Positions 26,967 to 30,998 of a stretch of 64,000 bases of DNA are shown here, one piece after another (positions within the stretch are counted from its first letter, which is position 1; each line of letters begins with the position of its first letter). Made by a program: the position numbers and the translations under genes. Source of the DNA: Pseudanabaena galeata CCNP1313 (GTDB taxonomy: Bacteria; Cyanobacteriota; Cyanobacteriia; Pseudanabaenales; Pseudanabaenaceae); assembly GCF_029910235.1 (NCBI RefSeq), contig NZ_CP112874.1, positions 2,418,001 through 2,482,000 on the forward strand, written 5' to 3'. Below the pieces are notes generated by a model that did not search any database, was not told where the DNA came from, and saw only the letters and a program-made list of their open reading frames with translations.

Positions 26967-27044
26967 AGTACTAGTCTCCTATTTTTTCAGTCCAGCTAAC
27001 CATACTACAGCCTTAAAGTATCCTTCGGCAATACTTAGGACATA

Positions 27045-27155: not shown

Positions 27156-30100
27156 CTACTTTTTCAACAATTGGGGTGTGTGGGCTTCGTCGATGCCTGC
27201 TAGATGAATGGCGTTACAACCGAGCTTAAAGGCGAAATCGTAGGGTTTATTTGCGCCAAGGGCGGTGTAGAAACCAACGGCAAATTCGATCGCAGCTCTA
27301 TCTCCAATTTTTCGATCCATACCGATGACGTAGTTGATATGTTGAGATATGGCAAGTGCTTGTGTTTCGCTGTAGCAGGCGTTGAGAACTACGCATTCAA
27401 GGCGATCGCTAAATAGTTCAAATAGATCGGCTAGGGCTTCACCGCTAATCAGTTTAGGATTACCGTCGATATCTTCAAATACTAGTCCTGCTTCGTTGCC
27501 GCCATGCCCTGAAAAATGGATGATTTGCGGATCGAAGTCTAGGATTGATTGCTGAATGTCTCTAGGGCGAACGGCGACGGCACTTTTGATGGGTTCTGTG
27601 CCATAACCTGCGAGGCGTAATCGTTCTTTGATGTCGCGTTCTTCTTCTTGGAGTCTCAAAGAGACTGAATTTTTAGGGTTTGCCGCCAGCATGAGGATTG
27701 TTTTCATGGGTTTAGTTTCATTTTTTGCTTTATTGGAGGGTGATGCGTCAGAATTTGTGTTCGGATTGAGGTTATTATTTTGCATCCCGATATTTTTGCC
27801 TTGAGTCGTGGTATTGCCGCCAATTACCTGTCCGACTTCTTTGTGGAAAATATAGGTATTACCTCGACTTTCGGCTTTCTCGTCTCGCGATCGCCTGTCT
27901 TCGATGCTACTAATACCGTCAAGTAATTCGCGGATATTGTAGTCGTGATCGCTTCCTTCAGGAAAATAGTTTGTCTCGCCTCTCGATTCTAACTTGAGTA
28001 GATGTTTGTAACTGATGCTGAATTTAGGATTATCAGGCAAGGGAACACGCTCATCGACTTCTAGTGCCGAGATGCTGAGGTGGATCGATTCAAAATTGTT
28101 GCGAATGGCGGCGAGGGTGGATCGGCGTGTGTTGGGATTGCCATCAATGCGGATAAAGATTTTTGCATCGGCGAGATCGGCTTTGATGTAGGCGCGATTG
28201 CTCTCGGAGAAGGCGAGGATTACGCCTGTGCGCCAGTAGGTTCGTTTAGAAATGCAGTGATGCATTTTGACGATGAAGCGGGAAATGACGCTGCTAAATA
28301 GAATTTTGTAGTGATATTCAAGGTTGAGAGTATTTTCCCATGTGCCTGTGTCGGGTTCTTCTTCGTCAAGGAGTTCGGGAATTAGGTAAATGGGTTTTTG
28401 AGAATTGGAATCGAGGGGAAAACATAGCTCGAATTTTTGCATCATGTCGAGGATGAATTGCCGATCGCGGTTTTCTTCATAACAATTGCGATCGCCTTTA
28501 TTTTTCGGTGTGAGAATGCGGGTGAGGTCTTGCCAGTTCAGCATTCCCTTATGTTTGGTGCTGAGTAGATTGTCATTGAGAATGCGATATACGCCGCCCG
28601 TGACCCATTCGGGATTGAGAACGCTGGTGTCTTGCAGTCTGGTATCTTCGGCGAAGTTGAGAACGATGCCCAGTAGGTGCAGGAGTCGAATTAGGTCGCG
28701 GCGTTCTTGGCGATCGCTAATTTCTTGATCGTTACAAATACGCTCATATTCGGTGTAGCTGATATGGTCACGGTTGTCCTGTTCGATTTGTTCCTTGAGG
28801 TGAAACCATTGCTGTGGTAGTTCATTAAACACATGATCCATTGCGGCGATTTGTTGGGTGATTTCCTTGCGAAGATCGTCAACACCTAGCCCTGTTTTGC
28901 AGGAGGTTTCAAAGAAGCCTTGAATGTTAGGATATTTTTCTTGCAGATGGCGGCGGTTGAGTTTGAGGGGATGTTCGTCGCTTTTATTGGCAATAATCAG
29001 AACGGGGGCATCTTTGCCGAAGCTCTCAATAATTTTTAGCCAATATTCGACATCGTTGTTGCCTTCGTCTTTGCGGGCATTGAGTACTAAGAGATAGAGG
29101 CTGCGCTCGGTCAAAAAGAACTGATGGGTGGCGTGCATGATTTCCTGTCCGCCAAAGTCCCAAACCCTGAGCTTCACTGTTTCTTCACGAGCTTTTATTT
29201 GCCAATGTCTGATATCAATGCCTTCAGTTTTGGTTTCGTCGGGTTTGAAGTTACGATCAATCAATTGCCGCATCAGTGAGGTTTTGCCGACTGCGCCATG
29301 TCCGATTAAGATCACTTTCGCTTCATTCAGTGGCTTCCGTTCACCCTGTTTCAGCTTTTGCCAATACCCAATGATCGCTGCTGGGTTATTAATATCATTC
29401 AAAATCTCTGGTGGGATTGGTAACGGATTATATATAAGATTAAGAACTTTGAGGTTAGCGAGTTGGGAGATCGCGTCAGGTATCGCCGTTATTTGGTTGC
29501 TATGGAGGTAAAGCTCTGTTAGATTTGCTAATTGGGAGATTGCGTCAGGTATCGCCGTTATTTGGTTGCGATGGAGGTAAAGCCCTGTTAGATTTGCTAA
29601 TTGGGAGATCGCGTCAGGTATCGCCGTTATTTGGTTGTCCCAGAGGTAAAGCTCTGTCAGATTTGCTAATTGGGAGATCGCGTCAGGTATCGCCGTTATT
29701 TTGTTGCTAGTGAGGTCAAGCCTTGTCAGATTTGCTAATTGGGCGATTGCGTCAGGTATCACCGTTATTTGGTTGATACCGAGGTCAAGCCTTGTCAGAT
29801 TTGCTAATTGGATGATCGCGTCAGGTATCGCCGTTATTTTGTTGCTACCGAGGTCAAGTCTTGTCAGATTTGCTAATTGGATGATCGCGTCAGGTATCGC
29901 CGTTATTTTGTTGCTACCGAGGTCAAGTCTTGTCAGATTTGCTAATTGGACGATCGCGTCAGGTATCGCCGTTATTTGGTTGCTAGAGAGATAAAGCTCT
30001 GTCAGATTTGCTAATTGGGCGATCTCGTCAGGTATCGCCGTTATTTGGTTGTATGGAATATGAAGTTCTTTGAGATTGGTTAATTGGAAAATCTCTTGGG

Positions 30101-30290
30101 GAATCGCAGTTAAACGATTTCCTCTTCCCCATTCCACATCGTCATACCATCCTAAAATCAACATTTCTAGCTTTTGCAACCGTCCAATTTCAGGCGGCAA
30201 TACCTTCAAATCATTTCCCGTCAGATCGAGTGCCTTCCAGCTCTCTCGTTCTGCTTGTGCGATTATTGCCAATAACTCTGCATCATTCAT
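27156..30290 (-). CDS. LRR-Roc-COR-CHAT protein (ROCO GTPase fused to caspase-like protease)
   Basis: The protein is 1044 residues. Residues about 20-290 are leucine-rich repeats, nine of them (83-289) near-identical 23-residue units. Residues about 322-480 form a Roc GTPase: P-loop GHGAVGKTS near 330, RVWDFGGQE, and ANKSDE. Then comes a COR-like region (about 500-720). A linker rich in Gly/Asn leads to a CHAT caspase-like domain from residue 862, with the His/Cys dyad His929 in HFSGHG and Cys972 in LNACYS. In eukaryotic and bacterial ROCO proteins the LRR senses and Roc-COR dimerises. CHAT domains are proteases in bacterial immune and death pathways (for example gRAMP/TPR-CHAT). An NLR-like role is inferred. 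No membrane segment is seen. It lies 67 bp downstream of a toxin-antitoxin-like pair. Confidence 0.9.
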   Translation of the reverse strand: MNDAELLAIIAQAERESWKALDLTGNDLKVLPPEIGRLQKLEMLILGWYDDVEWGRGNRLTAIPQEIFQLTNLKELHIPYNQITAIPDEIAQLANLTELYLSSNQITAIPDAIVQLANLTRLDLGSNKITAIPDAIIQLANLTRLDLGSNKITAIPDAIIQLANLTRLDLGINQITVIPDAIAQLANLTRLDLTSNKITAIPDAISQLANLTELYLWDNQITAIPDAISQLANLTGLYLHRNQITAIPDAISQLANLTELYLHSNQITAIPDAISQLANLKVLNLIYNPLPIPPEILNDINNPAAIIGYWQKLKQGERKPLNEAKVILIGHGAVGKTSLMRQLIDRNFKPDETKTEGIDIRHWQIKAREETVKLRVWDFGGQEIMHATHQFFLTERSLYLLVLNARKDEGNNDVEYWLKIIESFGKDAPVLIIANKSDEHPLKLNRRHLQEKYPNIQGFFETSCKTGLGVDDLRKEITQQIAAMDHVFNELPQQWFHLKEQIEQDNRDHISYTEYERICNDQEISDRQERRDLIRLLHLLGIVLNFAEDTRLQDTSVLNPEWVTGGVYRILNDNLLSTKHKGMLNWQDLTRILTPKNKGDRNCYEENRDRQFILDMMQKFELCFPLDSNSQKPIYLIPELLDEEEPDTGTWENTLNLEYHYKILFSSVISRFIVKMHHCISKRTYWRTGVILAFSESNRAYIKADLADAKIFIRIDGNPNTRRSTLAAIRNNFESIHLSISALEVDERVPLPDNPKFSISYKHLLKLESRGETNYFPEGSDHDYNIRELLDGISSIEDRRSRDEKAESRGNTYIFHKEVGQVIGGNTTTQGKNIGMQNNNLNPNTNSDASPSNKAKNETKPMKTILMLAANPKNSVSLRLQEEERDIKERLRLAGYGTEPIKSAVAVRPRDIQQSILDFDPQIIHFSGHGGNEAGLVFEDIDGNPKLISGEALADLFELFSDRLECVVLNACYSETQALAISQHINYVIGMDRKIGDRAAIEFAVGFYTALGANKPYDFAFKLGCNAIHLAGIDEAHTPQLLKK
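29424..30044 (-). repeat. 69-bp coding tandem repeat, nine units (LRR)
   Basis: Nine consecutive 69-bp units encode residues 83-289 of the ROCO-CHAT protein with the consensus ITAIPDAI-QLANLT-L-L--N. Units are nearly identical at the DNA level, and adjacent ones differ mostly at the exposed LxLxxN positions. The homogeneity points to recent unit duplication. Confidence 0.9.
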
Positions 30291-30357: not shown

Positions 30358-30699
30358 TCATAGAAATTCCAACACATTTTTTATCGATTCATGGGAACTT
30401 CTTTGTAGCAAAGCTAACAGCCTTCGCAAAGCTTCGCCAATCGGCAACTGCGGCGACACAATAATTCCAAAATGTTCCTTTTCTGAAATCACATAGTCAT
30501 TGTGCAGCAAAACAAAATCCTTCACATTGAAAGTAAACATACAACTAGCCTTCTCGACTGCATACTCAATCTGTTCGCGATCGCTTCTCCCCTTTCTACC
30601 CAACTCTTGCACATGAGTAGCTTCATATCCCCTCTTGCGTAAAGCCGAAGCCAAGTCAAGCTGTACATCTTCATCTAGCAATAACTTCACCTTAGCCAT
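30358..30699 (-). CDS. DUF5615 PIN-like protein (putative toxin)
   Basis: The 113-residue protein has a PIN-like/Mut7-C fold: KLLLDEDVQLDLASALRKRGY, a central HVQELGRKGRSDREQIEYA, and TFNVKDFVLLH. The acidic residues expected for metal binding (DED, D in SDREQ, D in VKDF) are present. DUF433/DUF5615 pairs behave as toxin-antitoxin-like modules by association. It starts 2 bp after the DUF433 gene ends, so the two are co-translated. Confidence 0.82.
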   Translation of the reverse strand: MAKVKLLLDEDVQLDLASALRKRGYEATHVQELGRKGRSDREQIEYAVEKASCMFTFNVKDFVLLHNDYVISEKEHFGIIVSPQLPIGEALRRLLALLQRSSHESIKNVLEFL

Positions 30700-30701
30700 C
30701 T

Positions 30702-30998
30702 TTAACGACCTGCTTTAGGATGAAATAACGCTTGACTCTTCCAATACTCAATATTAGAAGACTCTTCCAAATCCTTCTCAACTTCTTCCTGATGATCGAA
30801 ATAATAGGCAAGCGCCGAATGTACCTGAGAAGGGCGTAAATGGGAAAGCACACTTAAAATTTCATCAACATTCATCCCCATCTGATAATATCCAGCAATC
30901 CGCCGCACCGTTACCCTCGTGCCTTCAATAATTGGCACACCACCCGCAATCTCAGAACTAGCGGCAATATAAGGATAAATTGTTGCAGTAATACTCAT
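30702..30998 (-). CDS. DUF433 protein (putative antitoxin)
   Basis: The 98-residue protein has the DUF433 core GGVPIIEGTRVTVRRIAGYYQMGMNVDEIL followed by LRPSQVHSALAYYFDH, a helix-turn-helix-like fold. The order antitoxin then DUF5615 is standard. This is the first gene of a likely minus-strand operon that continues into the ROCO-CHAT gene. Confidence 0.85.
   Translation of the reverse strand: MSITATIYPYIAASSEIAGGVPIIEGTRVTVRRIAGYYQMGMNVDEILSVLSHLRPSQVHSALAYYFDHQEEVEKDLEESSNIEYWKSQALFHPKAGR

What the first reader, a model, noticed from the sequence alone, without database searches (positions are those of the whole stretch)
27156..30290. One-chain LRR-Roc-COR-CHAT protein: bacterial NLR-like sensor with a built-in caspase-like protease
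The chain carries leucine-rich repeats, an intact GTPase P-loop, a COR-like region and a CHAT domain with both catalytic residues (His929, Cys972). Sensor, switch and protease are fused in order, much like eukaryotic inflammasome/NLR logic, but with a ROCO switch in place of NB-ARC. ROCO proteins are widespread in cyanobacteria, and CHAT proteases kill or signal in immunity. The combination with an LRR ligand array is unusual and could be an abortive-infection sensor.
Basis: partly seen in the sequence, partly recalled or inferred. Interest (0 to 1): 0.8.

Follow-up and report, generated by a model that had tools for sequence, protein, structure and literature searches.

The report
Bacterial immune-like receptor with swappable protease
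A pond cyanobacterium carries a single protein that joins a ligand-binding array, a molecular switch and a caspase-like protease; close relatives keep the switch but swap the weapon and vary the sensor, much as immune-receptor families do, though its role has not been tested.

Summary
Window 27156-30290 (-) is one 1044-aa chain: LRR array, Roc GTPase, COR-A/COR-B, a disordered linker and a CHAT domain with His929/Cys972. The CHAT fold is caspase-like; its best solved match is the activated SAVED-CHAT filament (Z 19.8). The class is known: Kaur et al. 2021 (PMC8195603) describe bacterial LRR/AP-GTPase-COR conflict proteins with at least 24 C-terminal domains, caspase included; CHAT is not named in that text. 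The same fusion is in 8 of 26 same-genus genomes (10 genes) and rare in what was sampled elsewhere. New here: (1) receptor core and CHAT have separate histories (AU tests p<1e-6), with a sharp breakpoint after COR-B; near-identical cores carry CHAT, transmembrane or helical tails. (2) LRRs are 69-bp DNA repeats whose amino-acid changes concentrate on the ligand-binding face. (3) Effector modules begin at an in-frame start codon; in a sister class it is ATG or GTG, with a ribosome-binding-like motif before 32 of 45. Free effector may therefore come from the same gene; for CHAT this is only suggested. Defence function is inferred, untested.

The parts
27156..30290 (-). LRR-Roc-COR-CHAT gene, 1044 aa
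29421..30245 (-). LRR sensor array (about res 16-290)
   Evidence: Pfam LRR_8 E 1e-86; ordered solenoid in the model
29463..30051 (.). 69-bp DNA tandem repeat, 8.5 copies, 90% matches, encoding 23-aa LRRs
   Evidence: amino-acid changes concentrate at repeat positions 3, 5, 7, 8
28848..29318 (-). Roc GTPase (res 325-481); P-loop GHGAVGKTS at 29277-29303
28368..28817 (-). COR-A (res 492-641)
27915..28337 (-). COR-B (res 652-792); exchange breakpoint at about res 782-802
27708..27914 (-). linker res 793-861, mostly disordered (803-858 under pLDDT 50), with motif GNTYIF..VGQVIGG....GKNIG.QNN of which a similar form precedes another effector class
27159..27707 (-). CHAT caspase-like domain (res 862-1044)
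27705..27707 (-). in-frame ATG (Met862) at the first residue of CHAT; candidate internal start
   Evidence: ATG in 10 of 10 fusions, ribosome-binding-like motif in 1 of 10
27504..27506 (-). catalytic His929 codon
27375..27377 (-). catalytic Cys972 codon
30358..30998 (-). DUF5615 (PIN-like) and DUF433 genes, a likely toxin-antitoxin pair (function recalled); neighbours, part of the variable island rather than of the receptor
27032..27035 (.). point where DNA synteny with four relatives' rpmB-tyrA region ends (island edge)

Best explanation
This is an intracellular one-chain receptor of a ROCO repertoire in Pseudanabaena. The LRR array binds a ligand, probably from an invader. Binding shifts the Roc-COR switch between GDP and GTP states, and the change is passed through a flexible linker to the CHAT protease, which then cuts cell or partner proteins and arrests or kills the cell, or starts a protease cascade. 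Natural variation acts on both ends of the conserved switch: the LRRs change copy number and ligand-facing residues, and the C-terminal effector is exchanged as a cassette (CHAT, membrane-segment modules, helical modules). Shown by sequence: domains, dyad, predicted fold, cassette exchange, LRR diversification, patchy presence. Inferred: ligand sensing, nucleotide control of the protease, proteolysis, defence.
For: Domains and dyad. Fold: best match 8TL0, the activated SAVED-CHAT filament, Z 19.8 over 181 of 183 residues. Exchange: among 9 fusions with a CHAT that is not cut short, Roc-COR identity is 32-95% and CHAT 78-98%, with no correlation (Mantel r -0.02, permutation p 0.34); core data reject the CHAT grouping {W, G305a, G299} (p-AU 4e-7) and CHAT data reject {W, G314} (4e-77) and {G193b, G299, G304, G295} (5e-36). 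Two genes of one genome share 34% of the core and 98% of CHAT, with the last stretch 100% identical in DNA. Breakpoint: window versus G311 is 87-98% nt up to about 61 residues before Met862, then 38-54%. LRR: pN/pS 2.31 at the four ligand-face positions against 0.42 elsewhere (Fisher p 1.5e-9). Patchy: 8 of 26 genomes; no ROCO beside rpmB-tyrA in 9 of the 10 relatives looked at, one in the tenth. A published bacterial class of this layout is proposed as counter-invader (PMC8195603).
Against: No function is tested. PADLOC gives a 'chat' model hit for this gene and, for five neighbours, one weak hit (PDC-M16B, E 0.006). No partner or substrate gene was recognised among the neighbours scanned. 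The Mantel test shows absence of correlation only, on 9 genes; the AU groups were named after the identities were seen. LRR repeats are related copies, so the Fisher p is optimistic; against neutrality alone the ligand-face excess is p 0.005. CHAT could be a relay or a binding module despite its dyad. How CHAT sits on the rest is not predicted (pTM 0.61).
Confidence: 0.6

Rival explanations
1. A developmental or stress regulator: as for CHAT proteins such as HetF (recalled), the protease controls differentiation, division or filament breakage in response to an internal cue.
For: CHAT proteins are abundant in this genome (29 matches); Pseudanabaena is filamentous (recalled).
Against: Patchy presence in 8 of 26 genomes, no ROCO at the site in 9 of 10 relatives looked at, repeat diversification on the ligand face and effector exchange suit conflict better than housekeeping.
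Confidence: 0.15
2. A self/non-self recognition or mobile-element conflict gene (allorecognition, plasmid exclusion or addiction), not antiphage as such; its ligand is a rival strain's or element's protein.
For: A 76% identical Roc-COR lies on a conjugative plasmid; toxin-antitoxin-like genes lie beside it and their DNA recurs upstream of other ROCO genes.
Against: The window copy is on the 4.9-Mb contig; no self-variant pairs were sought.
Confidence: 0.2
3. CHAT here is only a scaffold or a relay: it clips its own linker or one partner and does not itself kill.
For: The linker is long and disordered; the closest solved CHAT is the SAVED-CHAT filament (8TL0), part of a type III CRISPR protease cascade (recalled).
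Against: His and Cys are invariant in the aligned sets, so catalysis is probably kept; a relay would still be proteolytic.
Confidence: 0.25
4. A chance or assembly-made fusion without biological meaning.
For: Rare outside the genus.
Against: Ten genes in 8 genomes with an open frame across the junction, one of them with a stop inside CHAT (L076).
Confidence: 0.02

Closest known systems
Prokaryotic AP-GTPase (Roc)-COR conflict proteins, Kaur et al. 2021 (PMC8195603; section 15 read, passages elsewhere)
   Same: N-terminal rapidly evolving LRRs, Roc and COR, variable C-terminal effector (TIR, caspase, trypsin, EADs and others), several paralogues per genome
   Different: CHAT is not named in the main text (0 occurrences; supplementary tables could not be read, and CHAT may be counted there as caspase); that section gives domain lists, here breakpoints, tree conflict and start-codon junctions are measured
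Chlorobium tepidum Roco (3DPU, 6HLU, 8R4B)
   Same: LRR-Roc-COR layout and fold; 6HLU aligns over 718 residues, Z 29.5, rmsd 8.1
   Different: No CHAT; GTP drives it to a monomer (PMC11052575, abstract)
SAVED-CHAT (8TL0; its type III CRISPR setting is recalled)
   Same: CHAT fold and aligned His/Cys motifs, E 9.4e-23, Z 19.8
   Different: Sensor is a SAVED domain that forms filaments, not LRR-Roc-COR
Brown-algal ROCO candidate immune receptors (PMC11378527, abstract and passages)
   Same: LRR-ROC-COR with 23-aa LRRs; positively selected sites 14, 16, 18, 19 have the same spacing (+2, +2, +1) as positions 3, 5, 7, 8 here
   Different: Eukaryotic exons shuffled and spliced; no protease effector mentioned in what I read
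NLR/inflammasome and bNACHT proteins (recalled)
   Same: Order sensor-switch-effector on one chain, in part
   Different: STAND NTPase in place of Roc; oligomer mechanism not shown to be shared
Cas11 small subunits made by in-frame internal start (PMC11899642, title and start of abstract in a search listing)
   Same: A second product from an internal start in a defence gene
   Different: Demonstrated there; only predicted here

Membership tests
Prokaryotic Roc-COR (AP-GTPase) conflict proteins | LRR + Roc + COR on one chain | tested here: met
   structure matches
Prokaryotic Roc-COR (AP-GTPase) conflict proteins | Variable C-terminal effector among close relatives | tested here: met
Prokaryotic Roc-COR (AP-GTPase) conflict proteins | Paralogues with different effectors in one genome | tested here: met
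   own genome: 3 COR-A matches; the other two have tails with hydrophobic segments (L085)
Prokaryotic Roc-COR (AP-GTPase) conflict proteins | Counter-invader function | not testable with these tools
   no phenotype data
CHAT proteases (caspase clan) | CHAT profile over cut-off | tested here: met
   PF12770 38.2 bits, cut-off 24
CHAT proteases (caspase clan) | His/Cys dyad | tested here: met
   invariant in 9 of 9 and 11 of 11 aligned sequences, window included
CHAT proteases (caspase clan) | Caspase-like fold | tested here: met
   8TL0 Z 19.8; caspases, separase, Csx29 Z about 10-11, on a predicted model
CHAT proteases (caspase clan) | Proteolytic activity | not testable with these tools
   no assay possible
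NLR / STAND receptors | NACHT or NB-ARC STAND NTPase | tested here: not met
   the NTPase families above their Pfam cut-offs are all Ras-like or translation-factor-type GTPases (Roc, Ras, Arf, Gtr1_RagA, MMR_HSR1)
Bacterial amyloid (BASS) NLR signalosomes | Shared amyloid motif between receptor and a separately encoded effector | not tested
   a repeated linker motif was seen, but no BASS profile was at hand
CHAT-gasdermin systems | Gasdermin gene next to the protease | tested here: inconclusive
   neighbours scanned gave none; sensitivity of the models for gasdermin not checked

The most novel reading that the evidence does not exclude
ROCO receptor genes of cyanobacteria are two-product genes: an internal start codon at the receptor/effector junction also makes the free effector, so the few receptor-bound copies could act as ligand-gated seeds that recruit or activate a pool of free effector from the same message. 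In the helical-effector class the junction residue, where it could be placed as Met or Val, is ATG or GTG (45 distinct windows: 36 ATG, 9 GTG, no other Val codon), with a ribosome-binding-like motif in 32 of 45 against 4.5% (n=289) at other in-frame ATG/GTG codons upstream in the same genes, and synonymous sites in that motif are biased (GGA 17 of 17 against 21%; GAG 10 of 16 against 17%). For this CHAT gene the ATG is kept in 10 of 10 fusions, but the motif is present in only 1 of 10.
Probability: 0.4. Interest if true: 0.82.

Novelty: new variant of a known kind. Interest (0 to 1): 0.64.

Why it matters
It gives a bacterial receptor family in which the parts of an immune-receptor arms race are visible at once in close relatives: a conserved switch, a sensor diversified on its binding face, and exchangeable effector modules including a caspase-like protease. 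That makes natural chimeras available for testing how a ROCO (LRRK2-type) switch controls an attached enzyme, a question the LRRK2 field calls unresolved (PMC11052575, abstract). The start-codon junctions, if functional, would be a way for one gene to encode both the sensor and a free effector pool.

Tried and rejected
Assembly or chance fusion: rejected, ten genes in 8 genomes. A further match of linker and CHAT with two stops (G309:C61; L095) was not counted, and one search does not list all its matches. NLR membership: rejected, no STAND NTPase. A gasdermin or other substrate next door: none recognised. Phages: the collection gave matches in the LRR part only, 18 records, none covering 80% of the query; viral contigs gave 9 loci with CHAT relatives at 37-46%, not examined for fusion. 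Membrane and helical tails: no Pfam family over its cut-off apart from the end of COR-B, so their action is unknown.

Start-codon test. The 17 of 70 helical-tail hits not counted as Met/Val: 10 are Gly in proteins with a different N-terminus (9 with an in-frame stop 35-115 codons upstream, one ran to the locus edge); the other 7 align badly (in L061 and L203 a Met lies three residues away, by eye). The 53 counted include weak hits down to 28% identity; 45 windows remained after removal of duplicates. The Val-to-GTG argument has a weakness: a Met-to-Val change passes through GTG first. The control is 20 Met/Val columns of Roc-COR in 119 sequences, where GTG is 89 of 336. On a tree of 42 core sequences the label ATG/GTG changes 7 times, at least 5 forced by starred branches, but core and tail recombine. 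A replicate in a transmembrane tail class gave matches in 10 of 388 genomes, too few and diverse to count: of the fusions read, L109 has GTG and L124, L165, L260, L261 have ATG (L259's junction was not reached by the printed stretch); four relatives (L262, L263, L264, L266) have an in-frame stop and then an ATG just before the membrane segment, so the module begins a protein there (frames of 688, 89, 671 and 591 aa). No statistic is drawn. In the other tail classes of the genus the motif is present in 0 of 3, 0 of 5, 1 of 4, 0 of 1 and 0 of 4, and in 3 of 3 helical.

Literature: Roco with CHAT domain (0 papers); Roc-COR with CHAT (1 unrelated); three of Roco, leucine-rich, cyanobacteria, CHAT (15 listed, which led to PMC8195603); AP-GTPase/COR domain; Roco protein with antiphage (none of the 10 listed of 1,053 holds 'roco protein'); CHAT protease with gasdermin, SAVED-CHAT, Cas11 internal translation: listings only. 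Subscription papers and preprints are not held, so absence from print is not shown. PMC7159879 and PMC7889193 were seen as passages.
Full report
What is there. The ORF at 27156-30290 (-) encodes 1044 aa. Pfam assigns LRRs, Roc, COR-A, COR-B and CHAT, each over its cut-off. AlphaFold2 on 49 aligned sequences gives an LRR solenoid, Roc-COR, a disordered stretch 803-858 and an ordered CHAT (pLDDT 87.5, pTM 0.61). The low pTM means that the placing of CHAT relative to the rest is not predicted. CHAT alone (pLDDT 85.5, pTM 0.86) matches 8TL0, the activated SAVED-CHAT filament, at Z 19.8, rmsd 3.1 over 181 residues, then gingipain, separase, caspases and Csx29 at about Z 10-13 (Foldseek TM 0.81). 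His929 and Cys972 follow the strands 923-927 and 966-969 of the model, the caspase arrangement as I recall it; the distance itself was not measured.

Where it occurs. A search of 292 cyanobacterial genomes with residues 671-1044 found matches in 45; by my reading of the listed rows, COR-B and CHAT lie in one frame only in the window's genome and one congener (few candidates per genome are scored). Within the genus, 8 of 26 genomes hold the fusion, 10 genes, the window's included: 9 whose CHAT is not cut short (one, L066, lacks five residues) and one with a premature stop (L076); two of the 9 (L032, L064) run off a contig end on the N-terminal side. Of the 63 tails of 70 aa or more, 17 match TIR, 3 CHAT, 2 EAD7, 2 phosphorylase; the other 19 were not scanned. 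Two Nostoc plasmids show other variants: LRR-Roc-COR with a full-length CHAT (L052, 121 bits) and WD40-Ras/Roc-metallophosphoesterase with a tail related to this CHAT (L054, 45%).

Effector exchange. Among the 9 fusions, core identity is 32-95% and CHAT identity 78-98%, uncorrelated. The window's core is 95% identical to that of G314 but its CHAT only 82%; with G299 the core is 36% and CHAT 94%. AU tests reject a common history in both directions (the groups were named after seeing identities, and the core tree has long branches). In G193 two genes share 34% of the core and 98% of CHAT, with 100% DNA identity in the last part; an assembly artefact there is possible, but beyond the first 72 bp and one short piece their downstream flanks differ. 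The reverse also holds: cores 95.5, 89 and 88% identical to the window's end in a membrane-segment tail (L057), another such tail (L059) and a helical tail (L061), and a 76% identical core on a Nostoc plasmid lies in a protein annotated SAV_2336 N-terminal domain-related, beside a MoxR ATPase gene. The breakpoint lies after COR-B, at about residues 782-802. Among 44 ROCO ORFs compared, tails fell into classes: 12 CHAT (L052, L054, L076 and the window included), 11 and 2 with two or three hydrophobic segments, 7 and 4 helical by appearance, 8 others.

Locus. rpmB-tyrA beside the gene was found without a ROCO in the 2-6.5 kb seen beyond rpmB in 9 of 10 relatives; the tenth, G295, has another ROCO-CHAT beside tyrA. 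Against four relatives aligned at DNA level, synteny ends at window 27032-27035. DNA of the upstream DUF433/DUF5615 pair recurs upstream of other ROCO genes. This fits an accessory, exchanged locus.

Sensor diversification. The LRRs are a 69-bp tandem DNA repeat, 8.5 copies, 90% matches. In 9 genes, changes along minimum spanning trees of repeats give pN/pS 2.31 at positions 3, 5, 7, 8 of LxxLxLxxN and 0.42 elsewhere (90:9 against 78:62, Fisher p 1.5e-9; ligand-face excess over neutrality p 0.005). G314, with a 95% identical core, has 15 repeats that fit the pattern where the window has 8. Brown-algal ROCOs show positive selection at four sites with the same spacing (PMC11378527, passages).

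Start-codon junctions. In most ROCOs of the genus an in-frame ATG that looks like a native protein start lies where the tail begins (a few, such as L070, L072, L073, L081 and L086, show none of the kind). Exchange can fall exactly there: L067 and L068 are 84% identical in DNA just before the codon and 39% from it on; L065 and L068 are the reverse, 60% then 93%. In the helical class, 53 of 70 aligned hits have Met (41, ATG) or Val (12, all GTG); 45 distinct windows remain, 36 ATG and 9 GTG, with a ribosome-binding-like motif in 32 of 45 against 4.5% (n=289) at other in-frame ATG/GTG codons of the same genes. Control columns with Met and Val use GTG for 89 of 336 Val. Relatedness inflates these figures; the two different peptide contexts that both hold the motif, and 5-7 ATG/GTG changes on a tree, argue for selection. 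For the CHAT class the ATG is kept in 10 of 10 and the motif found in 1 of 10; but in this window only 1 of 10 gene starts checked has such a motif, so its absence says little. Nine of the other CHAT frames printed have a Met at or next to this residue, where they could start.

How it probably works. By analogy with CtRoco, which is monomeric when GTP-bound (abstract of PMC11052575), ligand binding to the LRRs would change nucleotide and oligomer state and free or cluster the CHAT domains on their flexible tethers. The published class is proposed as counter-invader (PMC8195603 section 15). All of this is inference for this protein.

Verdict. It works like an NLR but is not one.

Noticed in passing
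L143 class and relatives (L194-L258): Helical effector tails of cyanobacterial ROCOs start at an ATG or GTG codon, often preceded by a ribosome-binding-like motif: a likely internal translation start.
   Followed up: yes
L085 (own genome, G000:C1:1221500-1229500): Two ROCO genes in close tandem on the same strand, both with tails that have hydrophobic segments.
   Followed up: partly
L051 (Nostoc sp. UHCC 0926 plasmid pn3, 4360-7848): A Roc-COR 76% identical to the window's sits in a SAV_2336-type protein next to a MoxR ATPase gene and near a CHAT gene, on a plasmid typed as conjugative.
   Followed up: partly
L031 and L032 (two genes of G193): Nearly identical CHAT cassettes on 34% identical receptors in one genome, 100% DNA identity over the last stretch: recent exchange or conversion.
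   Followed up: yes
window residues 809-840 and L078, L079, L081, L086, L088: A similar linker motif (GQ..xG....G.NIG.QNN) precedes both CHAT and an unrelated helical module; an oligomerisation or amyloid-like role was not tested.
   Followed up: no
window 30358-30998: DUF433/DUF5615 toxin-antitoxin-like pair; DNA of this stretch recurs upstream of several other ROCO genes in the genus.
   Followed up: partly
G000, whole genome: 29 CHAT matches; the three weakest, including this gene, match only part of the Pfam profile.
   Followed up: no
L262, L263, L264, L266: Relatives of a ROCO membrane tail in which a stop and then an ATG precede the membrane segment, so that the module begins a protein of its own.
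   Followed up: partly
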